Assembly (NCBI GenBank): GCA_020881915.1
Contig: JAJFPB010000001.1
Coordinates: 1,426,001-1,490,000, forward strand
Source of the DNA: Paramyrothecium sp. XJ0827
Lineage: Eukaryota > Ascomycota > Sordariomycetes > Hypocreales > Stachybotryaceae
Length of the DNA: 64,000 nucleotides
Reading direction: 5' to 3'
How positions within the stretch are numbered: position 1 is the stretch's first letter; every line of letters begins with the position of its first letter. The translations under genes and the position numbers were made by a program. The notes beneath the pieces are model-generated. The model saw only the letters and a program-made list of their open reading frames with translations, was not told the DNA's origin and ran no database searches. This document shows, one piece after another, positions 33,601 to 60,775 of the stretch.

Positions 33601-33960
33601 CTCAGCTGCCAGACTGGAAAGGTCTCTCCACGAAACTCGTCAAGGGGTGCCCATTCCGTTGCGGATGGAATTAGCAAGAAGTCTGCATCCCCCATACACA
33701 CATCTTCACTGCAAAGAGAGCTGTCTGCCGATGGCGCTACGCAAGCAAACGTGAAAGCGGACGGTCGTCCAGCATCAACACAAGTGAATAGCCCAGTTTC
33801 TGTGCCCGGTACAACCGCACCCAGCGGAGCTCCGTCAGCCATTGGACCCAAATCTACAACAACAATGATGCCTCCACCTAGCCAACCGAGACTGACTGGC
33901 GGCGTTGCGGGTCAAAACATGACTGCAATACGAGAGGAGCGAGAGTCTAGTCAACCATGA
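30652..33960 (+). CDS. wc-1: White collar 1 blue-light photoreceptor / GATA transcription factor
   Basis: Blue-light receptor and transcription factor that, with WC-2, forms the white collar complex controlling light-induced genes and the clock. Exons 30652-33546 and 33613-33960 give 1,080 aa. The start MEGFYSPSQQ leads into a polyglutamine/His tract (residues ~14-75). The LOV domain (~residues 385-520) has the photoactive GQNC442RFLQ motif, an 11-residue flavin loop (APDGNVEAGSK) and LLTMIPIPW. Two further PAS domains lie at about 595-700 and 715-820. A basic KKKRKRRK nuclear localisation signal precedes the GATA finger, C933-x2-C936-x18-C955-x2-C958, followed by GLRWAKQ. The 66-bp intron 33547-33612 (GTAAGG..GCTAAC..CCAG) is phase 0 and stop-free, so an unspliced reading would add 22 residues; family alignment (WAKQ-TGKVSPR) shows it is an intron. 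Confidence 0.97.
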   Translation: MEGFYSPSQQSSSQQLLSNFPQQQQQQQYQEQQQRQLRQQHQQLQHEHQQLQQQHRQLQQQHLHEIHEQDQRRFMQTQMQQNTMNMSNHNATSSQPAMTPMSRDQSMIDSADAFDEIMRDNQVDLQRRRSVPQPYSNQMLQEQNHRRMSSIDTGDIMNFGGAGNQSDLGNYQFTQSMSTAFPTLDTSGLNQMGNYMTDTNDYSAMSPDLMGSMIPSTFANMNMDSLSNGSPNQMHLFPPVPTTSAPNSTTPQYAPPQLGALPEDFSMDMNPDDATPGGRPLDTPSKDAMSGQQQNSPAGATSNPAQQSGSMNVDSGMASYNQGILARQVSSPGSGISPQRVNSSASITQPSSSSNVTTPTTSTTPREPKEKTIYSKSGFDMLKALWMVATRKNPQINLGAVDLSCAFVVCDVNMNDCPIIYVSDNFQNLTGYSRHEIIGQNCRFLQAPDGNVEAGSKREFVDDGAVYSLKKMVHEGREVQQSLINYRKGGKPFLNLLTMIPIPWDTEDIRYFIGFQIDLVECPDAISGQEMGGVKVNYKHSDIGQYIWTPPSSSQWEPEKGQTLGIDDVSTLLQQFNPPGLVSDWHKQSWDKMLLENTDDVVHVLSLKGLFLYLSPACKRVLEYDASDLMGNSLSSVCHPSDIVPVTRELKDTAAGNMVNIVFRIRRKNSGYTWFESHGSLFVEQGKGRKCIILVGRKRPVFALSRQSLEANGGIGDSELWTKLSTSGMFLFVSSNIRSLLDLQPESLVGTSIQELMRKESRADFGRAIEKARKGRIVTCKHEVQNRRGQVLQARTTLYPGDAIEGQKPSFLLAQTKLVKASSRSIAPASTAASVRSGAMTPRSDATGGPSQTSGPASQPAGGGLAQGSQDLALASDDNIFDELRTTKCSSWQFELRQMEKINRILAEELGGLLANKKKRKRRKGVGNVVRDCANCHTRNTPEWRRGPSGQRDLCNSCGLRWAKQVRRCARSQSSLSSRLWANLSCQTGKVSPRNSSRGAHSVADGISKKSASPIHTSSLQRELSADGATQANVKADGRPASTQVNSPVSVPGTTAPSGAPSAIGPKSTTTMMPPPSQPRLTGGVAGQNMTAIREERESSQP
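30712..30850 (+). repeat. CAG/CAA-rich repeat encoding polyglutamine in WC-1
   Basis: A mixed CAG/CAA/CAC tract encodes Gln runs broken by His, Leu and Arg (QQQQQQQ, then LQHEHQQLQQQHRQLQQQH). Polyglutamine at the WC-1 N-terminus is also known from Neurospora. Such tracts vary in length between strains. Confidence 0.85.
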
Positions 33961-35183: not shown

Positions 35184-38100
35184 TCACTGCTCGTCCATCA
35201 CGTCGGCGATGACGTCGGCCATGGACTCGGCGCCGTCGATGCCCCACGACTGCTCGACGAAGAACGTCTTGGCCTCCTTGGGCTTCCAGAGGTCGTTGAA
35301 GGCGGAGAAGAGGACGACGTCGGCCGGGTTGGCGGTGTAGGCCTCCTTTATCGAGTCGACGGCCATCTTCTGGTACTCCAGGCCGGGCATGGCCAGGCCG
35401 TTGGGCATGCCAGCGGTGGGCCAGCCCGTCTCGGCGACCATGACCTTCTTGCCCTCGGGCATCATGGCCTCGATGCGGTTGACGGTCCTCATCAGCCAGC
35501 TGCCGGCCTCCTCGGCGGTGGCGGTGGGGTCGAAGAAGGGGTGGGCGTTGAAGGCGCAGATGTCCGACTCCACGCAGAGCTCGGGGTAGGCTTCCACCAT
35601 GGTGTGGGTGTTCACCGTCACGATGGGGCCCTCGAAGCCGGCCTCACGCACTGCGCTTCGTGTCTTCTTGACTGCATCCACCATCTCGGCGGGAGTAGCC
35701 TCGCCCCTGTCGACCATCTCGTTGCCCACGCTGATGGCGAAGACCATGTCCCAGTCGCTGCTCATGGCCGCGATGATCTCCTCCGTCTCCTCGGCAATCG
35801 CCTTGGAGTCCCAAATCCCCAGGAACACCTTCATATCGTTCTCTCGGGCCGCGTTGCGCACCTTCTCGACTTGGTTGCAGTCGGTGCCGTAGATGCGAAC
35901 CATGGAGTACTTGCTCTTGAGGAGCTTCATGTCCTCGCTGACCTGCTCCTGCGACTTGCAGGCGTGGTTGCGCATGTATGGTGCGTATGAGATACCAGGA
36001 AGCTCTTCCTTCTCCTCGTTCATGCTGGCCATCTCATCGCGACGGCGGAAAGGCCTTCCGTAGACGGGGAGAGGTAGAAACGGAGGTCTGTTAGGGCCGG
36101 GCTCATATCCAACGGGGGGGACGGGGGTAAAGTCTGTCGGCAGGCTACCAGGGGCGCTGTGCACCGTAAGGTGGCCGCCAACGGAGAGAGTGCCGGTGAC
36201 ATGGACGGGCAGTGGCAGAGGGAGCAGTGTGCCTGGGCTGATGGGCAAGCCGGTTATGGCTGGGAAAGAAGGACCAGTGGTCGGGAAAGGTGGGAAAGAT
36301 CCCAAGCCTCCAAGAATAGGGGCAAGTATTGTTAGCCAATTGATGGGCTGTCCGCCGCTAGGAAGTGAGCCAAGGAGGCCAGTCAGACCTCCGGGGGCGC
36401 TCAGGAGAGGACCGAGAAGGCCAAGTAGATTGGGCGATCCAGTACCCGGTACGCCAGTTCCTGGTTGCCCACCTCCAAGAAGAGGGGGTAGAAGCGAAGG
36501 TAGCAGTCCCAGAAGACCGCTGCCGGGTTGGCCAGTGGGGGGAAGCGATCCAAGAAGGCCTTGCAGAGCTCCGGGCGTGCTCAAGATGGGGCTGAGCAAG
36601 GAAGACAAGGCACCGGGCACGTTCAGAAGGGGATCAAGGAGACCCGGCAATCCGCTCCCAGGCAGTCCGCTTCCGGGCAAGCCACTTCCGAGGAGTGGGT
36701 CGAGGATGGTGGACAGACTTTCAGGCAAGCCTAGAAGGCCACGAAGCAGTCTGGGGAGTGGCCCGGGCAAGCCCAGAATGGGACCTAGAAGTCCGGGCAG
36801 CGCACTTGGAGCGTTGAAGATCGGGCCAAGGAGGCCAAACAATCCACCCGGTGCATTGAGAAGCGGGCTGAGGAGACCTGGCAATCCGCTTCCAGGCAGA
36901 CCACCAGGGAAGCCACCGGGCAGACCGCTTCCGGGGAATCCGGGACCCACCAGCGAACCGAGAAGGCCAGGGAGGGCTCCGGGCACATTCAGGAGGTTAG
37001 GTAGAAGCCCGGGCACGTTCAGGAGACCAGGTAGGAGACCAGGCACTCCCAGCAGACCAGGGAGAAGGTCAGGTACCCCGAGGAGTCCAGGGAGAAGTCC
37101 GGGCACTCCTAGTAGACCAGGTAGAAGGTCGGGCACATCTAGAAGACCAGGTAGCAGCCCGGGTACATCCAGAAGGCCGGGGAGAAGCCCGGGTACGTCC
37201 AGGAGACCAGGAAGGACTCCAGGCAGTCCCAGAAGCGGGCCCAAGAGGTCAGGCAAGCCAGATCCTGGTTGACCTGGAGTTCCCGGAGTTCCTGTCGGTA
37301 GGCCACCGTTCAGCAATGAGTTGAGGAGGTTGTCCAAGTCGGAGCCGGGAAGAGACAGAGGGCTCAAGAGACCCTCGAGGAGATCAGGCAAGTCAGTTGG
37401 CAGCGGGCCGAGCAGCGGGCCCAGAAGGTTCGGAAGGCCAGTTGGGGTGCCTGGTACGCCCGTCGGGAGAGGGCCAAGCAACGAACTGACAAGACCTGCA
37501 GGAACTCCCAGAAGCCCGCCAAGGAGGTTAGGCAGACCAGTAGGAACACCGGTAGGAAGACCCGTGGGCGCGCCTGTCGGCAGAGGGCCCAGCAGGGAAC
37601 TAACGAGACCTCCAGGTACTCCCAGAAGCCCGCCGAGAAGATCCGGCAAGCCTGTGGGAAGACCAGTAGGACTACCGGTGGGAACACCCGTAGGCGCACC
37701 TGTAGGAAGAGGGCCGAGCAATGAACTAACCAGGCCTCCGGGGACTCCCAGGAGCCCACCAAGAAGATCTGGCAGGCCAGTTGGCAAACCAGTGGGCAGG
37801 CCGGTCGGTAAGCCAGTGGGTAGACCAGTAGGCAGGCCAGTAGGGACACCAGTAGGGAGAGGGCCGAGTAGTGAACTAACCAGGTCTCCAGGGACACCGA
37901 GAAGCCCACCAAGAAGGTCTGGCAAGCCAGTAGGTAGACCAGTAGGTAAGCCAGTTGGAAGACCTGTGGGTAAACCTGTAGGAAGACCTGTTGGTAGATC
38001 GGTGGGTAGGTTAGTTGGCAGAGGGCCCAGCAATGAGCTAACAAGATCTCCGGGCACTCCAAGAAGCCCACCCAGAAGATCTGGAAGGCCTGTGGGCAGA

Positions 38101-41100
38101 CCTGTAGGTTGGCCGGTAGGTTGGCCGGTTGGGACGCCTGTCGGGAAAGGACCCAGTAGCGATGTGAGCAGGTCAGGCAAATCTGTAGGGAGGCCTGTAG
38201 GAATACCAGGCAAATCCGTAGGAAGAGGTCCAAGGATAGATGTGAGGAGATCGGGGATATCAGTGGGCAGTGGGCCAAGGATAGAGCTAAGAACGTCTGG
38301 CAAGTCTGTAGGCAGTGGGCCAAGCAGTGATCCCAGAAGATCAGGAAGATCTGTCGGAAGACCTGTTGGGAGTCCAGGCACGTCCGTAGGGAGAGGACCG
38401 AGGATCGATGTGAGGAGGTCGGGGATATCAGTTGGCAATGGGCCGAGGATAGATGTGAGGAGATCCGGCAGCTCGGTAGGCAAGGGACCAAGCAGCGAGC
38501 CGAGCAGGTCCGGCAGATCAGTTGGGAGGCCAGTGGGAACGCTAGGCGCATCTGTGGGAAGAGGTCCAAGAAGAGATGTAAGGAGGTCAGGAATGTCGGT
38601 TGGCAATGGACCAAGGATAGATGTTAGGATATCTGGCAAGTCCGTAGGCAGGGGTCCTAGGATAGACCCAAGCAGATCCGGCAAATCAGTAGGCAGGCCA
38701 GTGGGAACTCCTGGAATGCCGGTAGGAGTGTCTGTAGGCAAAGGTCCTAGAAGAGACGTGAGAAGGTCAGGTAGATCCGTCGGTAATGGACCGAGGATAG
38801 AACTGAGAACATCTGGCAGTTCTGTTGGTAGAGGACCAAGCAATGAGCCAAGCAGGTCTGGCAAATCGGTAGGAAGCCCAGTTGGGACGCCGGGAAGACC
38901 AGTAGGAATGTCGGTAGGTATTGGGCCCAGAATAGATGTAAGCAGGTCAGGCAGATCTGTTGGCAGAGGTCCCAGAATCGAGGAGAGAATATCAGGAACG
39001 TCGGTTGGGAGAGGGCCGAGCAATGAGCCAAGGAGGTCTGGCAAGTCTGTTGGAAGACCTGTAGGAACGCCAGGAAGACCAGTAGGAAGGTCGGTAGGTA
39101 TTGGGCCCAGAATAGATGTGAGCAGGTCAGGTAGGTCGGTTGGCAAAGGTCCCAGAATCGACGAAAGAATATCAGGAACGTCGGTCGGGAGAGGACCAAG
39201 CAAGGAGCCAAGGAGGTCAGGCAAGTCTGTTGGAAGACCTGTAGGAACTCCTGGAAGGCCAGTAGGGATATCTGTTGGGAGCGGACCCAGAATCGAGGTA
39301 AGCAGGTCTGGTAGATCCGTAGGAAGAGGTCCCAAGAGAGACGTAAGAACATCCGGAAGATCGGTAGGCAAAGGCCCAAGGAGCGAGCCCAGAAGATCTG
39401 GCAGGTCTGTTGGAAGTCCCGTAGGTGCGCCAGGGAGATCAGTGGGTAGGCCTGTTGGCAGGGGACCCAGGATAGAGGTGAGGATGTCAGGAACATCTGT
39501 TGGTAGAGGTCCAAGCAGCGACCCGAGCAGGTCAGGAAGATCAGTTGGCAAACCTGTGGGGAGGCCTGTTGGCACGCCTGTTGGAACAGGGCCGAGAAGG
39601 GAAGTAAGAAGGTCAGGTAGACCTGTTGGCAGAGGTCCCAAGATGGAGGTAAGGATATCAGGCACATCAGTTGGTAGGGGTCCGAGAAGTGAGCCTAGTA
39701 AATCGGGTAGGTCGGTGGGAAGACCTGTAGGTGCTCCGGGAGCATCAGTAGGCAGACCTAAGAGTGACCCGAGTAGGTCAGGCAAACCAGTAGGAAGATC
39801 AGTTGGCAGCCCTGTGGGTAGGCCCGTAGGAACCCCAGGAAGATCAGTAGGTAGGCCTAAGAGCGACCCAAGTAGGTCAGGTAAACCAGTAGGTAGCCCT
39901 GTGGGTAAGTCTGTAGGAACCCCAGGAAGATCAGTAGGCAGACCTAAGAGCGACCCGAGTAGGTCAGGTAAACCAGTAGGCAGCCCTGTAGGTAGGTCTG
40001 TAGGAACCCCGGGGAGATCAGTAGGCAGTCCTAAGAGTGAGCCAAGCAGGTCAGGCAAATCAGTAGGAATATCAGTGGGCAGCCCAGTGGGTAAGTCTGT
40101 AGGAACCCCAGGAAGATCAGTAGGTAGACCTAAGAGCGACCCAAGCAGGTCAGGTAAACCAGTAGGCAGCCCTGTAGGTAAGTCTGTAGGAACCCCAGGA
40201 AGATCAGTAGGTAGACCTAAGAGCGACCCAAGCAGGTCAGGTAAACCAGTTGGCAGCCCTGTAGGTAGGCCAGTGGGTAGATCTGTAGGAACCCCAGGAA
40301 GACCAGTAGGCAACCCTAAAAGTGAGCCAAGTAGATCAGGCAAGCCTGGGGCATCAGTGGGAGTTCCAGGCGTGCCGGTTGGGAAAGGCCCAAGAATAGA
40401 GCCAAGCAGGTCAGGTAAATCAGTAGGTAGATCGGTTGGTAGCCCTGTGGGCAGGCCAGTGGGAACCCCAGGAAGACCAGTAGGCAACCCTAAAAGTGAG
40501 CCAAGCAGATCAGGCAAGCCTGGGGCATCAGTGGGAGTTCCAGGCGTGCCGGTTGGGAAAGGCCCAAGAATAGAGCCAAGCAGGTCAGGTAAATCAGTAG
40601 GTAGATCGGTTGGTAGCCCTGTGGGCAGGCCAGTGGGAACCCCAGGAAGACCAGTAGGCAACCCTAAAAGTGAGCCAAGTAGATCAGGCAAGCCTGGGGC
40701 ATCAGTGGGAGTTCCAGGCGTACCGGTTGGGAAAGGTCCGAGAAGAGAACCAAGCAAATCAGGCAAGCCTGGGGCATCAGTAGGAGCTCCAGGGATATCT
40801 GTTGGCAAGCCGAAAATATCGGTAGGCAGTCCCAGAAGCGAGCTAAGAACATTAGGAAGCTCGGTTGGTAGACTTGTAGGAAGGCCCAAAATATCCGTTG
40901 GTAGGCCTAGAAGAGAACCGAGGATATCGGGAATGTCTGTAGGAAGACCAGTTGGAAGCCCTGGGATATCTGTGGGCAAGCCTAATAAGGAACTCAGGAC
41001 ATCAGGAATGCCTGTAGGAAGGTCAGTTGGAAGTCCGGAAAGGTCAGTAGGCAAGCCAAGAATATCTGTAAGAACATCTGTAGGCAGACCAAGCAGGGAC

Positions 41101-44100
41101 CCCAAGATATCAGGAATACCTGTAGGTAAGTCCGTGGGAAGACCTGGAAGGTCGGTTGGAAGTCCAGGAAGGTCAGTAGGTAAGCCAAGAATATCTGTAA
41201 GAACATCTGTAGGCAGACCAAGCAGGGACCCCAAGATATCAGGAATACCTGTAGGTAAGTCCGTGGGAAGACCTGGAAGGTCGGTTGGAAGTCCAGGAAG
41301 GTCAGTAGGTAAGCCGAGAAGATCCGTAAGAACATCTGTAGGCAGCCCAAGCAGGGACCCTAAGATATCAGGAATACCTGTAGGCAAGTCCGTAGGAAGA
41401 CCTGGAAGGTCCGTCGGAAGTCCAGGTAGACCAGTAGGCAAGCCAAGGATATCCGTCAGAATATCTGTAGGCAGTCCAAGCAAGGAACCCAAGATATCGG
41501 GTACGTCCGTAGGGAGGTTGGTTGGAAGCCCTGGAACATCTGTAGGCAAGCCCAATAAGGAGCTTAGTACGTCAGGAATTCCTGGAAGGTTAGTTGGCAG
41601 TCCTGGGATGTCGGTGGGTAGTCCAGGAAGACCGGTAGGTAAACCAAGAATATCTGTAAGAACATCTATAGGCAGACCAAGCAAGGAGCCCAAGATATCA
41701 GGTACGTCCGTAGGGAGGTTGGTTGGAAGCCCTGGAATATCTGTAGGCAAGCCCAATAAGGAGCTCAGTACGTCAGGAATTCCTGGAAGGTTAGTTGGCA
41801 GTCCTGGGATATCGGTGGGTAGTCCAGGAAGACCGGTAGGTAAACCAAGAATATCTGTAAGAACATCTGTAGGCAGACCAAGCAAGGAGCCCAAGATATC
41901 AGGTACGTCCGTAGGGAGGTTAGTTGGAAGCCCTGGAATATCTGTAGGCAAGCCTAATAAGGAGCCCAGAATATCAGGGACACCAGGAACATTTGTTGGG
42001 AGGCCGGGAAGGCCAGTGGGCAAGCCAAGAATATCCGTGAGGATATCTGTAGGTAGTCCAAGTAAGGAGCCCAAGATATCGGGAGCACCCGTAGGTTGGT
42101 CGGTTGGAAGCCCCGGGATATTTGTTGGCACGCCAAGAATGTCAGTAAGAACATCTGTGGGTACACCAAGCAAGGAGCCCAAGATATCAGGGACGCCGGG
42201 AATATCAGTCGGAATGCCGGGAAGGCCAGTGGGCAAGCCTAATAATGAACTTAGAATATCTGGGACGCCAGGAACATCCGTCGGGAGGCCAGGAATATCA
42301 GTCGGGATGCCGGGAAGTCCAGTAGGTAAGCCTAATAATGAGCTCAGAATATCTGGGACACCGGGAACATCCGTTGGGAGGCCGGGAATACCAGTAGGTA
42401 AGCCAAGAATATCTATAAGAACATCTGTAGGTACACCAAGCAGGGAGCCCAAGAGATCAGGGACACCAGGAACGTCCGTTGGGAGACCAGGAGTACCAGT
42501 AGGCAAGCCAAGAATATCTGTAAGAACATCTGTAGGCAGACCAAGCAAGGAGCCTAGGACGTCAGGAATGCCGGGAACGTCAGTTGGGAGACCAGGAAGG
42601 CCGGTAGGCAAGCCGAGAACATCTGTGAGGACATCCGTAGGCACGCCTAGCAATGAGCCTAGGACGTCAGGAATGCCGGGAACACCAGTTGGGAGACCGG
42701 GAAGGCCGGTAGGCAAGCCGAGAATATCTGTGAGGACGTCCGTGGGCACACCAAGCAAGGAGCCTAAGACATCAGGGATACCGGGAACGTCGGTTGGGAG
42801 ACCGGGAAGGCCGGTAGGCAAGCCAAGTATATCTGTGAGCACGTCCGTGGGCACGCCAAGTAGGGAGCCGAGAACATCAGGAATACCAGGAACATCTGTC
42901 GGGAGGCCGGGAAGGCCGGTAGGCAAGCTAAGAATATCTGTGAGGATGTTTGTCGGCAACCCTAGTAGTGAGCCTAGGACATCAGGGATACCGGGGACAT
43001 CAGTTGGCAGGCCGGGAAGATCAATTGGAAGTCCTGGGAGACCAGTGGGCAAGCCGAGGATATCTGTGAGGACATCTGTGGGCACACCAAGCAAGGAGCC
43101 TAAGACATCAGGGATACCGGGAACGTCGGTTGGCAGGCCTGGAAGACCAGTTGGAAGTCCTGGGAGACCAGTAGGCAAGCCGAGAATGTCCGTAAGGACG
43201 TTCGTGGGCACGCCAAGTAGTGACCCCAGAACGTCGGGGATGCCCGTGGGCAAGTCAGTAGGGAGTCCTGGAAGCGGTCCCAAAAGCGAACCGAGGAGAT
43301 CTGGGAAGTCGGTGGGAGAACCAGTTGGTGCGCCTGTAGCATCTGTCGGAACATTGAGAAGCGAGCTCAATACACCAGGAAGATCCGTAGGCAAACCAGT
43401 CGGTACTCCAGGCACGCCAGTGGGCAATCCGAGGAGAGAGCCAAGCACGCCGCCAACATCAGTGGGCACGTCTGTCGGAAGGCCTGGAAGGCCCGATGGC
43501 AGACCCAGCAGTGAGCCCAGAACGTCAGGAATATCCGTGGGAATACCAGGGATAGCCGGGAGGGTGGGAAGAAGTGAAATGTTCGGGATGGTTGGGATAG
43601 TTGGAACAACAACATCGATGCCCAGCAGCGCATCCAAGAGGCCACCCAGACCAGGATCTCCAAGTAGGGTGCTTAGAGCGCCACCCAGACCAGGCTCACC
43701 TAGCAGGGTGCTGAGAACATCTGGCAGTTGAACAGGAGGCGTGACTGTGGGAAGGCCAGGGGCGGAGGTGGGAAGTCCACCAAGGAGACCACCAAGAAGG
43801 CCATCCAGCAGATTTCCCAATGTAATATCCGCAAGCGTTAGCGAAGCCGGGGTCGGGGTGGGAATAGGAAGTGTCCCAGGAGAGGTGATGGGTAGGTCAG
43901 GAAGCGTAGTAGGAATGCCGAGCAGAGGGCCGAAGAGGCCATCGAGTAAGGAGCCGAGGGTAATGTCAGCTACAGTAAGCGGATCGAGGTTAGTTGGTAA
44001 TGCGACTGGGGGAACAGTTGGCTGCTGCCCCAGGAGACCACCAAGCAAGTCACCCAAGGGATTTGTCGGAGTGGGCGCAGGATTCGTTACCGGCGGTAGG

Positions 44101-46135
44101 CTTGGAATGAGCGAAGTCAGGGGATTGCCAAGAAGACCCCCAAGGAGATCGCTCAACGGGTTGGCTGGAGATGTGGGTAGCGCAGTCGGCAAGGGGTTTG
44201 TCACTTGTGGGAGTTGGCCGAGAGCAGAGCTGACAGGGTTGCCGAGAAGACCACCAAGCAAGTCCGTCAAGGGATTGGTAGGGGGAACAGCAGTAGGTAT
44301 GGGGTTTGACACCACAGAAACACCCAGAATGCTACCCAAAAGTCCGCCCAGCGGATCGGCTGGAGAGGTGGGAAGAGCGGTGGGTAACGGATTCGTCACA
44401 GGGTTCGTCACAGACGGAAGTCCTAGTAGGCCACCCAACAGTCCTCCAAGAGGATTTGTTGGTACCGTGGGAACTGGAGTCGGTGTTACTGGTTGAGGGA
44501 GAAGGAATGTCTCTCCCATAATGGAGTTGACGAGGTTGTCAATGTTGCTAACTCCATTGGCGGCAAGAAGCGTGCTCAGGGCCCCGGGGAGATGTGGCAG
44601 TGATAGACTCAGAGTCAATAAGCTCGGCGTCGGCAAAGCGGTAGGCAACGTAGGTAGTAGGATGTTGCTCAAGATGTTGCCTACAACGTTGGTGGGGGCT
44701 GTCACTGCTGGCAGAACGTTGGAAACCACAGGAACGATATTGGAAACTGCAGGGATGACGTTGGAGACCACAGGGACGACGTTAGAAACCACCGGAACAA
44801 CATTTGAAACCACTGGGAGAACGTTCGAGGCAACGGTTGGCACCAGGCCACCGAGAAGCCCGTTCAGGGCGCTGCCGAGTGCTCCAATGTTGGTAACAGG
44901 CGCGGCAACGTTCGACACCACAGGTGCAACATTTGACACGATAGGGGCCACGTTCGATACCACTGGAACAACATTGGAAGCAACGTTGGACACAACAGGA
45001 ACCACATTTGATGCCAAGGGGGCAACGTTGGAGACAACTCCAGCGACGTTCGACACCACCGGGACGATATTGGATGCGACTCCGGCGACGTTAGATATGA
45101 CGGGGGCGATATTCGATACCACAGGGGCGACGCTCGATACGATAGGGATGACAATCGAGGGGATGCCAAGGATGTTCGTGAGCGCCGGCGCGACGTTCGA
45201 TACCACGGGGGCCACGTTCGTTGCGACTCCAGCAACGTTAGAGACCACAGGTACCACATTCGATGCAACTCCGGCAACATTCGACGCCACGGGAGCAACA
45301 TTGGAAACAACCCCAGCGACGTTCGACACCACCGGCACGACATTTGATGCGACTCCGGCAACATTCGATACAACGGGAACCACGTTCGAAACTACCGGCA
45401 CGACGTTGGACACGACGGGCGCGACGTTGCTCACCACACTGGGAACTCCGAGAAGCCCGGACAGGAGTCCGCCGAGGAGGTTGTTGGTCGCCACCGGGGC
45501 GACTGTCGGGACAACAGGCGTGGTGACAGGGTTGACGGTGGGGATCGTGGGGATCGCGGCGCCGCCCAGGAGTCCGCCGAGGAGCACGGGGGTCGTTGCC
45601 GCGGCCTCGACCGCGGCGTTCACCTGTGCGAGGTACGCGGCCATGTGGTCCTTCGCAGAGGCGTACGCGCCCGCGAGGTCGGCGGGATAGGTAACGGTCG
45701 TCGGCTTGGGGTTTGCCACGTAGGCGGTGACTTTCCGGGTCGTCCTGTGGCTGATCTGTCCGTCATCGTTGACGAAGACGATGACCTCGTCCACCACGGT
45801 CGGTTCGTTGACCTCGGCCATGAAGCCGGCAGCCGTCGGTTCCCTCTTGACATTCACGACGTCCTCTACAGCTTCGGGGGCCTCGATGGCCTCGGCATCC
45901 GCCACCAATCCTGCATCTTCCACCTCGCGCAGCAGCCGGTCACCTGCACACAATGTTACTCTTGGCCTTCATCAACAACAATAAGAACGAAACCGATTGT
46001 ACGGATGAAGGTATACTCAGCAGCCCGAGGCTGAGCGCCAGTGAGCTCGGAACACGGGAAAGACTTACCAGCTGGGTGAGCTAGGACGGCAGCAGAGAGC
46101 GCGAGGCCTGAGACAACGATACGTCTCAGCCCCAT
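35184..46135 (-). CDS. Giant SCW4/SCW10/MP65-like cell-wall GH17 protein with ~3,200-residue tandem-repeat insertion
   Basis: Two exons, 46135-46069 and 45943-35184 (GT-AG), encode 3,608 aa. Exon 1 gives a signal peptide ([19 protein letters not shown]), missed if only the long exon is called. A pro-region ends at K55-R56, a Kex2-type site. Residues ~57-125 ([20 protein letters not shown] and on) resemble the conserved N-terminus of Scw4/Scw10/Mp65. Repeats fill ~residues 135-3310. A triarginine site (R3322-R3324) precedes the GH17 domain (G3339 to the end), which has [12 protein letters not shown], acid/base E3431 in SVGNEMV and nucleophile E3527 in VAETGWPT, so it looks catalytically intact. 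Family members act on wall beta-1,3-glucan and normally have a short Ser/Thr-rich linker. The repeat module's role is unknown; adhesive, structural or spacer functions are inference. No frameshift or stop interrupts 10.8 kb. Confidence 0.93.
36981..37220 (-). repeat. 30-bp tandem repeat, eight units (ten-residue LLxVPGLLPG motif)
   Basis: Related ten-base landmarks (GGGCACATTC and variants) fall at 36981, 37011, 37041, 37071, 37101, 37131, 37161 and 37191, a strict 30-bp period. Translated, each unit is LL(D/G/N)VP(G/D)LLPG. Confidence 0.88.
40311..40832 (-). repeat. 174-bp higher-order repeat, three near-identical copies
   Basis: The string CAACCCTAAAAGTGAGCCAA recurs at 40311, 40485 and 40659, exactly 174 bp apart. 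The first two units are nearly identical over their full length and the third diverges towards its end. 174 bp encodes 58 residues, so copy-number change would keep the frame. Confidence 0.9.
41071..41457 (-). repeat. 129-bp higher-order repeat, three copies
   Basis: AGAACATCTGTAGGCAG recurs at 41071, 41200 and 41329 with a constant 129-bp spacing (43 residues) and very little divergence between the first two copies. Confidence 0.88.
41501..42100 (-). repeat. 201-bp higher-order repeat, three copies
   Basis: GTACGTCCGTAGGGAGGTT recurs at 41501, 41702 and 41903, a 201-bp period (67 residues). Copies differ at scattered bases, and the third decays after about 90 bp. Confidence 0.88.
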
Positions 46136-47740: not shown

Positions 47741-49551
47741 TCAGTTTGCTTTGTTGCTCGTCTTGCGAGTCATGACCTTTGTTATGGCATGGCGAATGGT
47801 GACTCCGGCCTTTTCAATGTCCTTCTTAGGCAAGGCTGAGGTGACGCAGACTTTGAGTGCTGGCTTGGGGTACCAACTGTCGTCTTTAGGACGAATGGCA
47901 TTCGTGAGCGGCCGCGTCTTGAGTCTTGTAATCATAACACCGTTGGCGAGAGCCTAGAGGAAATTAAACCCGGGAGATCAGCATAGTTCGTGACAAAGAC
48001 TCGGGAGCTGGGGCTTTAGTATGTCTAAGACCGGGAAAGAAGTGGTGGAAATTGTCACTGACCTCGTCAACACACTCCATTAGAATGCGTTCCTGGTCCT
48101 CCACGGCCAGATTCCGGGCCTTGACAACATCCGGCTTCAAGACGAGTAGCATGATGGGGTTATCCAGAGCGCTGGTGCACATGACCCAGTCGCTGCGAGG
48201 ATCAAGTTGTGCCTTCATGGCCTTGATGTTCTCGCGGCATTGGGTGAGGATATCTGGATTAGATTGCAGCAGGTTCACCGTCTCGCTCGCCGTCATGGCC
48301 ATCATCGCGGGCAGAGCAGCCGAGTACGTGTACGCCGAAGAAGTGATGCGCTGATGCTCGACAACGTCTTTGGAGCCAGCGCAGAAACCGCCTGCAGCGC
48401 ACAAGGGGCCAGAGAGTGCACCGATGATCATGTCGACTTGCTGGGGATCGACATTTTGTGCCTCCGTTAAACCCCGGCCAGTGCGGCCAAGGACACCGAA
48501 GGACCACGTCTCATCCAGAATGATACGGAATTTGTACTTCTCCTTCAGCTCAACCAGTCTGGGCAAATCAGCCGCATCGCCGACTGTTTCGAATAAGCCT
48601 TCTGTAACAATGAAGCGTCGCGTCAGCTTTTTCGCCTTTGCCTGCTCTGCCGCCACGCTCTTCATCACCCTCTCGAGGCCATCCATGTCTCCGTGGTCAA
48701 ACCATTTGATGCTGCTGCGCGACGCTTGCAGGCCCTTGCGGATGGAGTAGTTGACAGCTTTGTCGGCGATAATGACATCGCCGCGCTTGCAGAAGGTAGG
48801 AATCGCGCTGGAGCTGACGGAGAAGGACTGGGCGTAGACTATGCAGCCCTCGGTGCCAAGGAAAGCGGCGATATCAGCCTCTGCCTTAACGTGGACATCC
48901 TGGGTGCCGTAGAACTGAGGGGGGCCGCAAGGGCCCACACCGTAGGTGCGCAGAGTTTGGATAGCTTTTTCCTTGATTTGTTCGTTCGCATTGAAGTTGT
49001 AGAAGTTGTAGGAGGCGAGGTTGGTAACGGTCCGGCCATTCGATAGCTTCGTCTTTGGACCGGTAGGGCTAGATCCAGGCAGCACGATTAGCCGGATTCG
49101 CTTGAAGAAGCACAGGATAGCAGGGCTGTCTTACCCTACGATGACAGGTACCCTCTCAGCCTCGGCCTCTTCGACGGCTGTCCTCTCTCCCACAAGAGGC
49201 TCGGGCGCCCAGTCATCAATGAGTTCGTCGATTTCCTGTCCTCGCAATCAGGGGTCAGCGCGCCGTATCCAGTCTTCCATCAGGGGGGGCAGCCTGCAAA
49301 GGTCGGGCATTTCCCCTTACATCTTCTCGCAGTTTGACGTAGTTCTGGGTGTGCGTCGAGTATGAAGGCGACAGCAGATACCGGATGAAGAAGAGAACGA
49401 GCACGAGCTCGATTGCCGAACGGATCGGGTCGTTCTGGTAGCTGGAGCGGATGTAACGGACGAGGACGGCGGAGCCAGGAACCTTTTGGAACGCAACTGA
49501 CGCCTGCTGCAGAAGCTCGCCTGCCTGGATTTGCAGGCTGTCCAATTCCAT
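47741..49551 (-). CDS. lcb1: Serine palmitoyltransferase subunit 1 (LCB1)
   Basis: Regulatory subunit of the ER heterodimer that condenses serine with palmitoyl-CoA, the first step of sphingolipid synthesis. Exons 49551-49321, 49235-49135, 49068-48063 and 47953-47741 (GT-AG) give 516 aa. A membrane-anchoring N-terminus (AIELVLVLFFIRYLL) precedes the PLP-dependent aminotransferase fold, with TVTNLASYNFYNF, YGVGPCGPPQFYGT and ILDETWSFGVLGRTGRG. As expected for LCB1, the PLP-binding lysine of LCB2 is absent; the equivalent stretch reads GALSGPLCAAGGFCAGS. The Cys in GPCGP matches the human SPTLC1 Cys133 region. The second exon is only 101 bp and restores EIDELIDDWAPEPLVGER, matching the family. 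Without splicing, the main exon looks like a 373-aa truncated protein. Confidence 0.95.
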
Positions 49552-50366: not shown

Positions 50367-53300
50367 TTAGAAAAGCCTGAGATTATCCGTCGCCTTCGCT
50401 TTCTCGGACATCTCACTGGCTAGAACGCCAGAGTAGCTCGCCGCGCCAGTACCAGTGACGGAACTGGCGAACGTGTTGTTTTTGTTGAAAGTAGGCTGCA
50501 ACAATCTGAAACCAGCCAGGTCTTTGAGCATGCCCTCGATGTTGGGCAGAATAGTATCGCCCATCACGATGGGGGCCACGATGAGAGCAACAAACACGAC
50601 CAGCAGGACGAAGTAGAGAATAGCATATCGGATGACACGTCTGCGTCGCAATTTTGACTGCTTCATCGAATAGATAGGTGGGCGAATCTGGCGACTACAA
50701 AAGAGTTAGCAACAATGAAACCAATCGCGTTATCTTCAAGATGGCGTACCTAGGCCTTAGCCAGAAGAGGAGAATTGAATGCAGGACATCGATCTTGGGG
50801 ATGACGATGAGCGGTAGCATCACAAAGAGAAGGAAGTGGCCAAGCAAAAAGTCGGCGGCAAACATGCCCAGTTCCGTGATTTTGCAGAGGAACTCGCGAG
50901 CAGGTTGCGAGATGGAATGCCAGCCCATGGAGTACCATTTGCCGGTCCAGAAAGCAATATTGGCATCATCAGTCTTCATCTCTCGTGTCAGAGCTAGGGC
51001 CACGATGAGCTTGAAGAAGAACCTCTGAAGAGCAACGACGGCGATCATTCCAGAGAGCGTGCGCGTGAAGTTGAAACTCTCCAAGACAAACATGGCCTCG
51101 AAGAAGATGATGAGGAAAATAACAGCCAACGCATGTGCGATGCCAGCCAAAACACTACCAACCTTCTTGCAGCAGAGCCCGAGGACAGGCCCCATGCAGC
51201 AAGCCATCGCGAACATGACAAGCAAGACGCCAGCATTGATAGCAACGGGAGCAAAGGCGACAATGAGTACACGGATGAGGGAATGAGTTTGTTTGAACTC
51301 ATCTTCGTCAACTCCTGGGTTACTCCGCGAGTTTACACCTGTCTGCGCATTGATGAAGAGATACGGGATGACACAGACAGCAGCGTACAGCAACGGTCCA
51401 AAAATTTCACTAAAGAAAAGGTTGGTAACTGCAGCACGAGGAACGTCGGCTGACATCTTGCCCGAAGGGTCGCCCAGGCTCTTGCGCTTGTATCCCGTGA
51501 TTCTCGTTCGGGACAAGCGACAGAATGCAATCCAAGAGGAGGCGTGAGTTCTAGAATTGCCTCGGGAAAGCCAGCGGAGAAAATCGCGGTAATCGATGAA
51601 GAAGTCGTTCCAGGCAAACTGATGAGGGTTGTAGAAGAACGGTGAGATGGTCAAGCCGAACAACGTCACCCAGAAGTAGATGAGTGCAGCATGCCAAACA
51701 GTCAAGGTCGCGAAGAGCAACATGAGCAGTACTCGAGCACCGAAGTAAATGGCCGGACCGGCAAACCGCGAGTAGAGGACGCCAAAGGGAATGCGAGCCG
51801 TGGCAAAACCACGACCAGTACCGATATATCTAGCTCCACCGAACGAAATGTTTTGCTGCACGGAGTTCGAATAAATCTGGCAAACAAAGACTTCGAAGAA
51901 CGGGGAGATAGAGCCCAGGTGCTTAGCGAAACGGGTGGCTGCACGCCAGAGACCACGTTCAGTAAGTACTTGAACGAAAAGTGGGACGAAGGCCAGGAAG
52001 AAGACGACGAAAATGGAGAAGATACTGCGCGTCACCCAGTCCATGATGGCATCGGTGTTAGAGCAGCCCGTTGGGTATAGGGGATCGGTAATAGGAACCC
52101 TTCGGTTGTAATCGCATCGCACAGTTTCGTGGCGTAGGGCGCCGAAGTTGAGTAGTACGATCATGAACAGCTGCACGGACAGCATGATGAACATGTTGTT
52201 GACGTGGAAACCGGCGTGCGCATAGTAGAAGGATAGGAAGCGGTCAAGAGGAAGTTGGGTGCCGAGGTAGTAGTACTCACGGGAGAGCAGTTGCTCACCC
52301 ATACCAGTGCCAATCTTGGTCGTGAAGTTGAGAATTGAACCAAATCCAAGATCACGACCCTTGCCACACTGGTAGTACTCGCAATGCTTGATACGGCCGC
52401 CTCTCAAGATAGCATTCATACCAGCGAAAATATCTTCGTTCAGATGCAATCCTTTCTGGGCTTTGGAGACACCACCACGGGTTGTCATGAAGATACCGTT
52501 CAAGAAATCAGGGTGACCATAGTGTAGCTTGCCACCAATCTGCGCCAAGGTTCGAGCAAAGAGGGTACCGAACGTCTGTTCCTTTCCGGCGGCAATATCA
52601 CCGAGAATACCAATATTTTCAGAGAAAATGTACTCGCGGGCACCTAGAATGGCAACAGGTGCATCGCCTTCGTTCTTAACTCCAGGAGTGTATGGGGAAA
52701 CATTGTCTTGTTTCATCTCCTCGAATTCAGCGAGGACACTGCGAATCTTCAGACACTCCTCGAGATAATTATCCTGGTTGGCATCGATGAGTTGGATATA
52801 TTCGCCGCGATAAAAGATCAAGGCGTGGTTCTGGTTGTCAGATTTGCCGTCTCCCAGGATGGGGTTGCCTGAGAGCTGGATCCTGAACTTAGGCTTTCGC
52901 ATACCATTCTCCATGACTTCGGAGTGACCATCCACAAGAGCAGAATACAGACGAGGCTCCTCGCCTTCTGCCACAGGAGGCTCTTCGTCAAGGTACGCAA
53001 TTTGAAGATCTGGATAGGCACGGAGAAGAAATTCGGCGTTCTCCATCTCCTCCTTTTTGAACTTAGAATAGCGTTGCATGGAGACGACCAGCTTGAACTT
53101 TCGCCGAGCCATGCGTTCGAGTTCACGTTCCAGTTTGTCAGAGTTGCCACCAAACATTTGGACAACTTCAGGGTTTTCCACGCGGTATAGCAGCTTAATG
53201 GCGCGGCTGTAGTTCATGAAGCCAGAGATCGTGCGGTACAGTGTCTGGAAGCGAAGCGATGCCCAGATACGGGTTCGAAGAGTGTACTCGGGCGCCGATG

Positions 53301-56296
53301 ACTTGAAACCGATGCAGTAGAAAGGAAGATCGTCAATCTTGCTCTTTGCTGTATCCTTTTCATCCTTTTCGGTCTCGCCGTTCATTTGCATCGTTTCGTC
53401 AGCCAGTATCTTCGTGTCCTTGACAAAGCAATCCCACTCGTGGGGGTGCAGCTGTTTCAGGTACTCCAACAAGGTAACGCGAGAGTATGGCTCGTCCTCA
53501 CGGATAATCTCACGAAGCGACAAGAGAATCTTCTCGCTATAGTGAGGAATCATAACGGTGAAGGTTGGCATGTTGTCAACGGGAAGCGGCTCTGGGATGG
53601 GCGTCGAAAGAGACTGGGCGAAGAAGGAGATGCGGCGTTCGGCTTCGCTGTTGGCGGGGAAAAATTCCGTCTTGAAGGAGTGATCTTCCTGCGACACGAA
53701 GAAAGTAGGAGCCCGCAAAGTTCGCTTTCCTTCTTGCTCCGATGGGACTTGATGATACAGGAGCTTCTGCACGTGGTCGATGGACAAAAGATGTTCGCGG
53801 TACATGGAAATAACAATAGCGTTCCAGACCTGAGAGATCAGGACTTTGGGCTTGTACTTGATCTCCATGTCTGTTGTAGCCAGCACCTTTGAATAGATAC
53901 GCTTAGGCAGACGAGAGAAGATGTTCCTCCAAGGCGTCCAAATTGAAGCGCCAATGTAAAAGGAACGAGCGATGGAGAATGCCGTGTTGACAAGGACGTA
54001 GAAGAGATAGGTATCAAGGAAGAAGAAAATGAGGTCTGTGAAGGCCATAATTGCGAGGAGAATGATTGGGTGGTTCGCACAAAGGTGTTTTCCAATGGTA
54101 GCATCTCCAAGGCAGGTCGACGTGTCCATGAGCGCGAGATATCGAATTGAGTCCCTAAAGGAGAGAGTCAAGTAGACGTAAGACTCGCCGAATTTGAGAC
54201 CAAAGACAACACACCAAAGTCCAAAGGACATGGCCATGTCGTTACCCTTCAATCGAGGCCAGCTAGCCGTGAATGTCTGACTGGCGACATATCTTCTCGA
54301 GTTCTTTGTCAGGTAGCTGCCGAAGAGTCCTCCCAGTGGCATGATGGCAAAGAAGAGGAATGTGAGGAGCGCAATGACGAAGTGTACGATACCGATGATC
54401 TTGTCAATAGTGGCATCGCCGGGAAGCAGGAAGACCTTGACTCCGGGTCCAACATTCACCGCAAGTACGACAATGAGAAACAGTAATCGCTTGGTCAGGT
54501 GTTGAGCGCCGGCCCATTTGCGAGGAACATACGCCCATTCAGCGATCGTCGCCAATACTTGAATCAAGGAGGCGATAGCACCGCCAAAACCAGCGAGGGA
54601 GAATTGCTTGCCCTCGGGTGGCTTCTGGTTCGCTTCTTGTTCATAATTCTCAACCAGAAGGGTAGGTGCGTTGAAGGTGGTGAAGAACCAGAAAATGGTG
54701 AAATGAATGATCCAGATACGATTGAAGTTGACGAGCAGATGGAACCAAGATCGAGACTCTTTGTAAGTCTTGAAGAAACACTTCTTCCAGTTCACATCCT
54801 TGAGCTTCAAGTATCGCTCGGCGGGAGGCACGTCGACAAGCTTGCTCTTATCCTGCATGACGATCCGATCAATTCCCTCAGGATACCAGAAAAGCTGGTT
54901 GCAGTCATCGTAACCAATGATGTGCTTGTGATCACGCTCACGTCGGACATAGACACCGTTGAGGATCTCGTATCCTTGGTCTCGAACGTACTGGTAGAGA
55001 GGCGTGATGACGTTGTTCAGGAAGGTAAACTCGTCGACTGGCTCAACCAGCGCCTGGCAAGCTGGCGAGTTGTAGTAGTCATCGGCGCACTTGAAGATAA
55101 AGCACAGGCACTCTGGCATGAATCGGACCTGATTGGCTTCACCCCAGCAGAGGAGGTAAAGAGCAATCTGCCGAACACGGTCGTGTTGAGACATGCGATT
55201 CATGCGTGTCTTCCAGCGGTACTCCGCAGCCTCTAGGCTGTCATCACCCTCGAGGTCTTGAAGAGTCTCGTCTTCATTACCATCCTGCCCCTTCTTCTTC
55301 TTCTTATTCTTCTTCTTCTTTGATCCAAAGCCTTTGCCGCTGGCATTGGCAAAGCCAACGGAGTCATCCAAGTCCAGGTGGGCAGCAAAATACCACTTGC
55401 GGTAATTGGCGTTATCACCGCCAATGTAGTCGGCATGCAGAGACAGGAGCGCTTGGTTCGGGGTCATGCGAGATGCCCTCGAGTCGAGGAGAACCATGAA
55501 GTGGTCATACATGTTCCGCATGCTGTCACGCTGAAAACCGAACTTAGATGTCAAATCCATAAAGATGTCCTCGATCTCCTCCTTTGAGAGAGGGATCTGT
55601 GCGTCTGAAGTCCATGCAGGGTAAGGTTCACGGGAGCGCTGGCCAGCAGGCAGTACATTGCCGTAGTCCATACCGTAGTTGGGAGATGATGCACCAGATG
55701 ATCGGTTTCCAGCATACGAGATCTGGGACGAGGGGGGGCGGTAACCTCTGCCACCCTGCGAATCACCATAGCTGTTGTAGCGCTCGTCACCACGACCATA
55801 GTAGTCCATCTCGGCGGCACGGGCCATATCAGACCTCATGGTGAAGTCACTGAAAGTCTCCGATTCTTCCTCGGATCCGTGGCGGCCGCGGCGGTCGTCG
55901 TACCCTTGGTTGTAGTCTTGATCATAATAACCCCCCTGGCCTTGGCCATTGCCGTAGTAGTCATCTTGGTATTGATCTTGGCCATCGTAGTAACCGCCAT
56001 CCTGGTGGTACGGGTTGTTCCTATCAGCATTGTAATAGCCGCTGCAAATCACACGTCAGTTTTTATACATAATTGCGACTCTGCGGTAAGCAAACTTACG
56101 ACTCATCGTAATATCCGTCACCGCCTTGGGGGCCACGGTTGTCACGGTTGTCGTAGCCGTTGTTATCATAGTACTGGTCGTCTTGGTAGTAGCCGTCGGC
56201 CTGGGCATTGTTCGGATGGCCATTTCCTTGCTGGCCGCCCGGATGACCGTAGCCATCGTCGTAATGGTCGTTACGACCACCTGGGTATCCCGACAT
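50367..56296 (-). CDS. FKS1: 1,3-beta-D-glucan synthase catalytic subunit (GT48)
   Basis: Plasma-membrane enzyme that polymerises UDP-glucose into wall beta-1,3-glucan under Rho1 control; the echinocandin target. Exons 56296-56100, 56041-50750 and 50694-50367 (GT-AG) give 1,938 aa, normal for the family. The N-terminus is Gly/Tyr/Asp-rich and presumably disordered, followed by a Lys-rich [13 protein letters not shown] patch. The FKS1 domain 1 lies near residues 290-400, then the first membrane cluster, the large cytosolic GT48 region (~residues 790-1340), and a second membrane cluster to the end. The last splice restores [20 protein letters not shown], a conserved block. Echinocandin hot spot 1 reads Y689-LTLSFRD-S697 and hot spot 2 begins D1400-WVTRSIF; both differ from the yeast forms. 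Single copy in the window. Confidence 0.97.
54148..54174 (-). other. FKS1 echinocandin hot spot 1 segment
   Basis: Encodes residues 689-697, YLTLSFRDS. Yeast Fks1 hot spot 1 (639-647) is FLVLSLRDP. The first Phe is Tyr here and the terminal Pro is Ser. Confidence 0.85.
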
Positions 56297-59200: not shown

Positions 59201-60775
59201 CAGGATTGGGTGGTGGACAACGCACCATCCTCCGTTCGTGATGTACGGTTCGCGCCGCTTCAGGGTGGCTTTCCCGATCAAACTCAATTGCACGTCGACT
59301 CCGTGGTTCAATTATACCTTAAAGACCAACCCGTAGCACACTGGAGGTAGTACATGGCGCTCAGCCACACTATATGTATATGCTTTAAAACCACCTCCTT
59401 AGGCATTGTAGCTTACCTTAGGCACTATACGACCACAGCCTGGGAGGAAACGCGTTTTCGGTGCAGGATAATCCAGGACATATGTGGTGTCGGATGTGCT
59501 CAAATTAAAGGTGGTGTGGGGCTTCTCAAACGCGATTCATCTCGATCCCCGGCACCCAAGCCAGACAAATCGAAGGGATGACACCATGAACCAGCGTCAA
59601 GAATTCCACAATTCGCTCGAGGCTGGTGGTTCTGTACCCCCCTAAGCTTTCCACATCTTGCCAGGACCCATGCTTGCCATGCTAGCGAGGCAAGGGCTCA
59701 ATTCATCCTAAGCATATTGCTTCTGCTTGGAAACTTCAATGCCATAGATTCTCAATTTCATGTTTCGGATGGCAGATGTTCCAATACAGCTTAGCCTACT
59801 TACGACTGGATCAGCGGCTGCTTCAAGTTGCCAGCCGAAGTGAAGTCGTCCGCCCGCCGGATCCGTGGCAGGGGTTTCTGTTTTCCAGAAGCTTTTGCCC
59901 CAGCCCCTTTCCGCACACTATTGCCACCATGCTTTCCGGTGCTTCCAGTGGGTCAGAATTGAGCTTCCAGCACGGCCAGTAGAGCTGGCTGTTCAAGCTT
60001 CGGGGCGGGCCTGCATCCGCTCTTCCGCGCCCGCTGTTATCGTGCAGGGTGGTAAAAAGTCTAAAACGTTGGCCGTTGCCTTGCATTGTATCACTGCAGG
60101 GGTCCTCAAACACGTCCTGGCGTGGTATTGACCATCAGCGTGTAGCGCGTCACAGATTCAAATGAGTTCCCCCGGGTACAGTAAAAAAAATACGCTATGG
60201 AAAGGGCATTGCTCAATACATTACTTTGAGCCGTGACAATGGACGAGGGTTGTGTACTAGAGATAAGGTGCTCAAGGTACTGATAGGTCCTAGGAGGACG
60301 GCTACCTTACGAGCTTCGTTACTGTATCCGAAGCATGTTTGCTCACGCACGAGTCACAAAAGCTCAACGATGCTCTCGTCTTCGACCTTTTCCTCAAGTC
60401 GCACAGGATATCAGCACAGGAGCGCAGAACAATATCGTAAGGTAGACGGAATCCCCGAGTGACCCGTGCTGTACTGTTCTGATGTATTCGACACTGTCGC
60501 CTTGAGACGAAACGTCGCTCGAGGCACGTGACACCGCGAGCTGTACCAACCGTTGCCCTGGAAACCAATGTCGAAAGCAAGATGCGTCAACTTTGGCTCG
60601 ATGAACAATACTTGGTGCAGAAGCATTCTATATGCACATTCAGTACCTTATCTAGTCGCTTCCGAGATACCGCGGCCCGTTTCTTTATCTTTGCTTCAAT
60701 CTTGTTCGTTGTCCATCACCGCCTATTGATGCTTTGGTTGGAGACAAATACCGGTCCGCATCGCAGTCTCCGTCA
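56297..60775. other. 4.5-kb gene-poor region between FKS1 and the SprT/GCNA gene
   Basis: Holds the FKS1 promoter and leader at its left end. No frame exceeds ~145 codons and none shows a domain. Visible features are a GGTACC cluster (57081-57344), a C8 tract near 57517, a run of 13 A at 57622-57634, and an AT-richer patch at 58290-58450. No tRNA or intact transposon is seen. Confidence 0.5.
57081..57344. repeat. Cluster of four GGTACC palindromes upstream of FKS1
   Basis: GGTACC at 57081, 57202, 57262 and 57339, with a fifth at 57842, embedded in AAGGTAAGGTACCTAC-type sequence. It is the same motif as the cluster upstream of wc-1. It lies 0.8-1.05 kb upstream of the FKS1 start codon. Function unknown. 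Confidence 0.5.

What the first reader, a model, noticed from the sequence alone, without database searches (positions are those of the whole stretch)
35184..46135. A cell-wall GH17 protein expanded to ~3,600 residues by an in-frame repeat array
Signal peptide, KR-terminated pro-region, conserved N-terminal segment and C-terminal GH17 domain are those of the Scw4/Scw10/Mp65 family, usually about 350-450 residues long. Here the linker is replaced by ~3,200 residues of Leu/Pro/Gly/Thr/Asp repeats, with the 10.8-kb frame fully open and both catalytic glutamates kept. I do not recognise this architecture. It suggests a very long wall-tethered or wall-released polymer carried by a glucan-binding enzyme.
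Basis: partly seen in the sequence, partly recalled or inferred. Interest (0 to 1): 0.92.

Follow-up and report, generated by a model that had tools for sequence, protein, structure and literature searches.

The report
Giant elastin-like arm on wall enzyme
In this fungus the gene for an ordinary small cell-wall enzyme (a GH17 glucan-remodelling protein) has grown about nine-fold, because its short spacer has become a roughly 3,200-residue repetitive, oily, possibly springy protein chain that evolution appears to be preserving, which would be an unusual kind of protein polymer for a fungal wall.

Summary
On the minus strand (46135-35184) lies one gene: exon 46135-46069, a 125-nt intron, then a single 10,760-nt exon, together 3,608 aa. 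Its N-terminus matches Scw4/Mp65 orthologues; its C-terminus is a confident GH17 barrel with both glutamates. It sits beside LCB1 as in a Verticillium relative and is the only Scw4-type gene found in the genome. In 98 of 114 homologues measured, at most 255 residues precede GH17; here 3,338 do. No protein of about 1,970-6,270 aa with this domain was found (0 of 687 candidates).

The linker behaves as coding sequence: repeat copies differ mostly at third codon positions (dN/dS 0.12) and long identical stretches are few. This argues against artefact or a spliced-out array.

The linker is hydrophobic, acidic, 19% Pro, 15% Gly, without Lys or Cys; one piece is predicted disordered. I read it as an elastomer-like wall polymer. 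The closest relatives form a Stachybotrys-containing clade. Function is inferred.

The parts
46069..46135 (-). Exon 1 (ATG, hydrophobic signal-peptide-like stretch [19 protein letters not shown], then HPA and the first base of Gly23)
   Evidence: signal peptide read from sequence, no predictor run
45944..46068 (-). 125-nt phase-1 intron, GTAAGT...GTGTGCAG
   Evidence: P0012 seems to read through an intron at the same point after HPA-G (read by eye)
35184..45943 (-). Exon 2: one open frame of 10,760 nt to the stop codon
45843..45848 (-). Lys55-Arg56, kexin-type site ending the pro-region
   Evidence: residue numbers; codons AAG AGG
45561..45842 (-). N-terminal segment (residues 57-150) shared with Scw4/Mp65 orthologues
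   Evidence: residues 1-150 against profile of 88 orthologue N-termini, E 9.8e-10
36057..45560 (-). Repetitive linker, residues 151-3318 (3,168 aa, 308 kDa, pI 4.05, GRAVY 0.62, 3 Arg, no Lys, no Cys)
44715..45434 (-). Linker block 1: [15 protein letters not shown] repeats (residues 193-432)
38085..43529 (-). Linker block 2: main array, PD(L/I/V)L(G/S/T)S(L/I)LG stickers alternating with [10 protein letters not shown] spacers (residues 828-2642; units mostly 15-43 aa)
36681..38084 (-). Linker block 3: PTG runs, then [14 protein letters not shown] repeats (residues 2643-3110)
36039..36047 (-). Arg-Arg-Arg (residues 3322-3324), candidate kexin/yapsin site between linker and enzyme
35187..35996 (-). 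GH17 catalytic domain (residues 3339-3608)
35718..35720 (-). Glu3431, acid/base position (VGNE)
   Evidence: 66 of 66 rows; role recalled for GH17
35430..35432 (-). Glu3527, nucleophile position (ETGWP)
   Evidence: 66 of 66 rows; aligned with the Ala of active-site mutant 4wtr
47964..49085 (-). Neighbour: LCB1-like serine palmitoyltransferase exon, same strand, upstream; marks conserved gene order
50695..56052 (-). Neighbour: FKS1-type beta-1,3-glucan synthase

Best explanation
This is the only Scw4/Mp65-type gene found in a hypocrealean-like fungus. Its disordered linker has been enlarged by in-frame tandem duplication into a roughly 3,200-residue hydrophobic, acidic, Pro/Gly-rich 'sticker and spacer' chain. 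Likely working: the protein is secreted and its pro-peptide removed at Lys55-Arg56. The GH17 domain docks on, and remodels, beta-1,3-glucan, and some molecules may become covalently held as in yeast Scw4. The chain, up to about 1.1 micrometre long if fully stretched (0.36 nm per residue), stays disordered and self-associates through PDLLGSLLG stickers, giving the wall a hydrophobic, elastic protein phase. Shown by computation: gene structure, family, orthology, constraint on the repeat frame, composition, predicted disorder of one piece. Inferred: secretion, processing, wall attachment, self-association, elasticity.
For: Family at both ends and fold: pLDDT 95; Rhizomucor GH17 transferase 4wtr, E 1.7e-17, TM 0.75/0.81. 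Same gene order and orientation, LCB1 then GH17, as in a fused Verticillium model. No second Scw4-type copy in the genome. A 667-aa linker query matched nothing outside this gene in its own genome (12 of 12 matches inside it). Linker constrained as protein. Not recent identical copies: 4 exact repeats of 60 nt or more, longest 173 nt. Composition. Disorder: one 385-residue piece folded alone gives mean pLDDT 43.8 and pTM 0.13, with short low-confidence helices at stickers. Elastomeric proteins combine hydrophobicity with high Pro and Gly, which keeps them disordered (PMC5703643, passages). Yeast Scw4 is processed by Kex2 and yapsins, which affects its covalent attachment (PMC7730094, passages). 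A. fumigatus scw4 deletion gives wall-stress sensitivity and conidial defects (PMC5872321, passages).
Against: No transcript, peptide or wall fraction was seen. The linker lacks elastin's VPGVG motif and cross-linking lysines. Lack of positive charge is common in fungal low-complexity regions (PMC11878562, title and passages), so it is not special by itself. AlphaFold on one low-complexity sequence without relatives is weak evidence of disorder. The Arg-Arg-Arg site may detach the linker from the enzyme. Full-length relatives were not available, so conservation of the linker between species is untested; P0006's upstream region does not match the linker beyond composition (best E 1.0).
Confidence: 0.5

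Rival explanations
1. Split-product model: a kexin-type protease cuts at Arg-Arg-Arg (3322-3324) as well as Lys55-Arg56, so the gene makes two wall products in equal amounts: a free GH17 enzyme of about 32 kDa and a separate polymer of about 320 kDa (residues 57-3324).
For: The site sits 14 residues before the GH17 core and is the only Arg/Lys doublet between residue 93 and the GH17 core. P0006, in the same starred clade, also has basic residues there. The genome holds a proprotein-convertase P-domain match. Yeast Scw4 undergoes double processing by Kex2 and yapsins (PMC7730094, passages).
Against: Cleavage cannot be tested here. A basic doublet in the 45 residues before GH17 occurs in 6 of 106 homologues where the start motif was found, five of them outside this clade, so it is neither typical of the family nor unique to the clade. 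The P-domain match covers 57 of 86 positions with a stop in the read-through. The upstream sequence of P0001 and P0005 is not held, so conservation rests on two sequences.
Confidence: 0.3
2. Tolerated inflation: the linker grew by slippage and unequal exchange in a disordered spacer and does nothing particular; selection only keeps it soluble, secreted and in frame.
For: Tandem arrays change length easily (general knowledge). The linker differs in third-position GC from the enzyme (46% against 92%). Its only family match besides GH17 near significance is the PT disordered repeat, below its cut-off.
Against: dN/dS about 0.12 over copies with silent differences near 0.5 implies old, sustained constraint on the residues. 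About 9.5 kb of coding sequence is a cost in the only Scw4-type gene found.
Confidence: 0.16
3. Artefact: assembly expansion of a short array, or an array that is spliced out.
For: Repeats are a classic source of misassembly; no reads or RNA were available.
Against: Copies are mostly diverged (best-partner identity median 78% in 63 of 105 blocks); longest exact repeat 173 nt; every copy pair found is in frame and mismatches concentrate at third positions.
Confidence: 0.04

Closest known systems
Scw4/Scw10/Mp65 GH17 wall proteins (A. fumigatus Scw4p, 369 aa; PMC5872321 Table 1)
   Same: Signal-peptide-like start, Lys-Arg pro-region, N-terminal segment, C-terminal GH17 with both glutamates, no C-terminal hydrophobic tail (read from sequence), gene beside LCB1 as in a Verticillium model
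   Different: About 3,200-residue Leu/Pro/Gly repeat chain; the whole region before GH17 is 3,338 residues against 42-255 in 46 orthologues with a signal-like start; extra Arg-Arg-Arg site before GH17
GH17 clade relatives P0001 (metagenome), P0005 (Stachybotrys elegans, annotated partial) and P0006
   Same: Starred clade with the window protein; P0006 has an L/P/G/A-rich upstream stretch and basic residues before GH17
   Different: None of the three records shows a signal-peptide start, so their linker lengths are unknown; P0006's held part is 227 residues and not detectably homologous to the linker
Elastin and other self-assembling elastomeric proteins (PMC5703643, passages)
   Same: Hydrophobic, very rich in Pro and Gly, repetitive, predicted disordered
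   Different: No VPGVG repeats, no lysine cross-link domains; strongly acidic; encoded in one frame with an enzyme
Kex2-processed repeat proteins, KEPs (PMC6339444, passages)
   Same: Repetitive, apparently secreted, fungal, with kexin-type sites
   Different: Kexin-type sites flank the array but none lies between its repeats, so it should not be diced into peptides
Pir wall proteins (PMC7730094, passage)
   Same: Kexin-type site and internal repeats; wall function inferred here
   Different: No C-terminal Cys domain; the repeat region has no Cys; C-terminus is GH17

Membership tests
Scw4/Scw10/Mp65 GH17 family | GH17 catalytic domain with two catalytic glutamates | tested here: met
   Glu in 66 of 66 rows
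Scw4/Scw10/Mp65 GH17 family | N-terminal segment of the family | tested here: met
   E 9.8e-10 against profile of 88 orthologue N-termini; best of 1,000 shuffles 0.03
Scw4/Scw10/Mp65 GH17 family | Secretory signal and kexin Lys-Arg pro-region | tested here: met
   read from sequence; no signal-peptide predictor was run
Scw4/Scw10/Mp65 GH17 family | Conserved gene order beside LCB1 | tested here: met
   window LCB1 72% identical to the N-terminal part of P0113, GH17 45% identical to its C-terminal part, same order; one relative compared in detail
Scw4/Scw10/Mp65 GH17 family | Short spacer, total about 330-520 aa | tested here: not met
   3,608 aa; at most 255 residues before GH17 in 98 of 114 homologues measured
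Scw4/Scw10/Mp65 GH17 family | Glucan binding or transfer activity; wall location | not testable with these tools
   needs enzyme assay and wall extraction
Elastin-like elastomer | High Pro and Gly with hydrophobic repeats | tested here: met
   Pro 18.8%, Gly 15.2%, GRAVY 0.62
Elastin-like elastomer | Lysine cross-linking domains and VPGVG-type repeats (recalled definition) | tested here: not met
   no Lys in the linker; no VPGVG seen in the translation (read by eye)
Elastin-like elastomer | Elastic recoil or phase separation | not testable with these tools
   needs purified protein
KEP (Kex2-processed repeat protein) | Kex2 sites between repeats | tested here: not met
   no Lys/Arg doublet between residues 93 and 3322
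Pir protein | Cys domain at the C-terminus | tested here: not met
   four Cys only, all within GH17

The most novel reading that the evidence does not exclude
A fungal lineage has turned a wall glucan-remodelling enzyme into a delivery device for an elastin-like protein polymer of about 320 kDa: the enzyme either grafts its own chain to beta-1,3-glucan or is cut from it at a dedicated site, giving the wall a true protein elastomer or hydrophobic sheath shared by a Stachybotrys-related clade.
Probability: 0.25. Interest if true: 0.85.

Novelty: new variant of a known kind. Interest (0 to 1): 0.62.

Why it matters
Scw4-type proteins are normally small. One that carries a constrained chain making it about nine times the usual length would be an unusual natural route for putting a structural protein polymer into a polysaccharide wall. 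It would give a direct way to test whether GH17 enzymes can graft their own linkers to glucan. The sequence (hydrophobic, acidic, no Lys or Cys, PDLLGSLLG stickers with PTD/PTG spacers) is also a possible template for elastomer design. If the Stachybotrys-related clade shares it, it may bear on wall or spore-surface properties of these fungi.

Tried and rejected
Rejected: artefact or spliced array (indirect evidence). Rejected: Kex2-diced peptide precursor, since no basic doublets lie between repeats. Rejected: a divergent copy beside a normal Scw4; searches with the Pfam family, this domain and a normal Scw4 found this locus plus four other GH17 loci (C10, C9, C11 and C7:1918898), the nearest of which, C10, is only 32% identical. 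These searches score only the best candidates and go exon by exon, so counts are lower bounds.

Inconclusive: repeat-induced point mutation as the cause of low third-position GC. Four-fold sites before A are T-enriched (0.56 against 0.24-0.32 in four other genes of the window), but the matching signal on the other strand is absent (0.35 against 0.15-0.34). Ordinary RIP indices rise in some segments, but repeat composition confounds them.

Led nowhere: homology between the linker and P0006's upstream region (E 1.0 with composition correction); Rfam and tRNA scans of the window (0 hits); bacterial promoter scan (not meaningful in a fungus); NCBIfam (a chance hit far under its cut-off). A paper search on Stachybotryaceae genomes gave three listings with nothing on this gene in title or abstract start. 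Paper searches on GH17 or Scw4 with repeats, linkers or Stachybotrys showed no title or abstract start describing such a protein: 20 of 22 listed; 8 of 8; 10 of 390; 9 of 9. Full texts of those were not read for this, and the library holds open-licence papers only.

Rows dropped: the tree used 53 of 114 homologues, and its program flagged the window row's residue make-up as unlike the rest; the N-terminal profile used 88 of 114; A1 used 65 of 114; upstream lengths were measured in 98 of 114. Four records were set aside there: P0108, P0113 and P0114 (serine palmitoyltransferase fusions) and P0112 (28% identical, 337 residues before GH17, judged another GH17 type); 12 had no recognised start motif.
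Full report
Observation. The gene is on the minus strand. The ATG at 46135 opens a short exon that encodes a signal-peptide-like stretch and ends in HPA. The direct frame stops inside an intron with a GTAAGT donor and GTGTGCAG acceptor (46068-45944). Splicing gives an in-frame CDS of 3,608 codons plus stop, of which exon 2 (45943-35184) is one open frame.

Identity. Pfam places GH17 at the C-terminus over its cut-off, although over a short stretch of the profile. Sequence and fold both point to the Rhizomucor miehei GH17 glucanosyltransferase (4wtp: E 6e-17 by sequence; 4wtr: Foldseek E 1.7e-17 on a model of pLDDT 95). Both glutamates are kept in 66 of 66 aligned rows. The N-terminal 150 residues match orthologue N-termini at E 9.8e-10, against 0.03 for the best of 1,000 shuffles. 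The upstream neighbour is LCB1 (72% identical to the first part of P0113), and the GH17 domain is 45% identical to the last part of P0113, a Verticillium longisporum model that holds both genes in the same order. So this is best read as the positional orthologue of Scw4/Mp65. The next recognised gene beyond LCB1 is an FKS1-type glucan synthase. Searches of the whole genome with the family, with this domain and with a normal Scw4 found no second Scw4-type locus. Across the three searches five GH17 loci appear, the number A. fumigatus has (PMC5872321, passages). A 667-aa linker query matched only within this gene (12 of 12 matches).

How unusual. With GH17 words only, three length classes were searched. 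Candidates of about 270-857 aa: 112 of 1,796 matched. About 616-1,960 aa: 3 of 1,668 matched, all named serine palmitoyltransferase by a source, two of them with both Pfam domains. About 1,972-6,274 aa: 0 of 687 matched. In 98 of 114 homologues measured, GH17 is preceded by at most 255 residues, median 131 (P0112, of another GH17 type with 337, and three fusions were set aside); here it is 3,338. Absence from a database of predicted proteins is not proof: gene models through such arrays can fail, and the Stachybotrys elegans record is marked partial.

Kinship. In a tree of 54 rows the window joins P0001 (66% identical, metagenome; 100/98). This pair joins Stachybotrys elegans P0005 and P0006 (100/99) (the program flagged the window row's unusual make-up). 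None of these three records shows a signal-peptide start. P0006 preserves 227 residues rich in Leu, Pro, Gly and Ala, with basic residues before GH17, but no detectable homology to the linker. A clade-wide long linker is suggested, not shown.

Linker anatomy. After a VSNV block (18 VSNV motifs) come 65 strict copies of a nine-residue sticker PD(L/I/V)L(G/S/T)S(L/I)LG (residues 828-2612; second position left free in the count), mostly 15-43 residues apart and separated by LPTD, LPTG and PG spacers, then PTG runs and GLLPGLL repeats. The linker holds 225 Asp, 3 Arg, no Lys and no Cys. It has Pro 18.8%, Gly 15.2%, GRAVY 0.62, pI 4.05, and 264 Pro-Ser/Thr steps that could carry O-mannose (glycosylation is inference). 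A 385-residue piece folded alone is low-confidence throughout (pLDDT 43.8) with short helices at stickers. Depletion of positive charge is a general trait of fungal low-complexity regions (PMC11878562, title and passages).

Selection. All 206 repeat pairs found at 75-95% DNA identity are in frame, with third-position excess. A second, block-wise test on 63 of 105 blocks gave dN/dS 0.119 (0.098-0.142). Limits: silent sites are heavily changed (pS about 0.5) and copies are not independent. One antisense frame shares its third positions with the sense frame, but it carries 4 stops while the sense frame has none and joins conserved domains. The longest exact repeat is 173 nt. I conclude the array is old and translated.

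Mechanism. Most likely a wall protein whose enzyme end handles beta-1,3-glucan and whose chain forms a disordered, self-associating, hydrophobic phase. Elastomeric proteins share this Pro/Gly and hydrophobicity balance (PMC5703643, passages). In yeast, Scw4 is cut by Kex2 and yapsins and a minor part of it is covalently bound to glucan (PMC7730094 and PMC7663962, passages). Here Lys55-Arg56 and Arg3322-Arg3324 bracket the N-segment plus linker, so a split into polymer and enzyme is the main rival; a basic doublet near this place occurs in 6 of 106 homologues. Loss of scw4 in A. fumigatus gives slower growth, conidial defects and wall-stress sensitivity; in N. crassa only the triple GH17 deletion shows mild growth and wall-stress defects (PMC5872321 and PMC8777122, passages).

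Verdict. A real, constrained and highly unusual enlargement of a known family: a new variant of a known kind. Function is unproven.

Noticed in passing
35184-56052: Three cell-surface or lipid genes lie in tandem on one strand: FKS1-type glucan synthase, LCB1 serine palmitoyltransferase and the GH17 gene.
   Followed up: partly
37321-43731 (+): A 2,136-aa antisense open frame runs opposite the repeat array; one antisense frame has only 4 stops in the linker. By my reasoning it is the frame whose third codon positions coincide with those of the real frame.
   Followed up: partly
35184-46135: Third-position GC is 92% in GH17, 78% in the N-terminus but 46% in the linker, falling roughly gradually towards the middle. 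Cause unknown; RIP test inconclusive.
   Followed up: partly
30652-33960 (+): A large PAS/GATA zinc-finger protein resembling White Collar-1, the fungal blue-light receptor (domains; the name is recalled).
   Followed up: no
P0108, P0113, P0114, P0061: Public records name Scw4-type GH17 proteins as serine palmitoyltransferase or fuse the two; likely gene-model errors from adjacent genes. P0114 is labelled Carpinus fangiana, a tree (recalled), so probably fungal contamination.
   Followed up: partly
60734-62815 (+): A SprT-like protein with a zinc ribbon and a sub-threshold HMG-box match.
   Followed up: no
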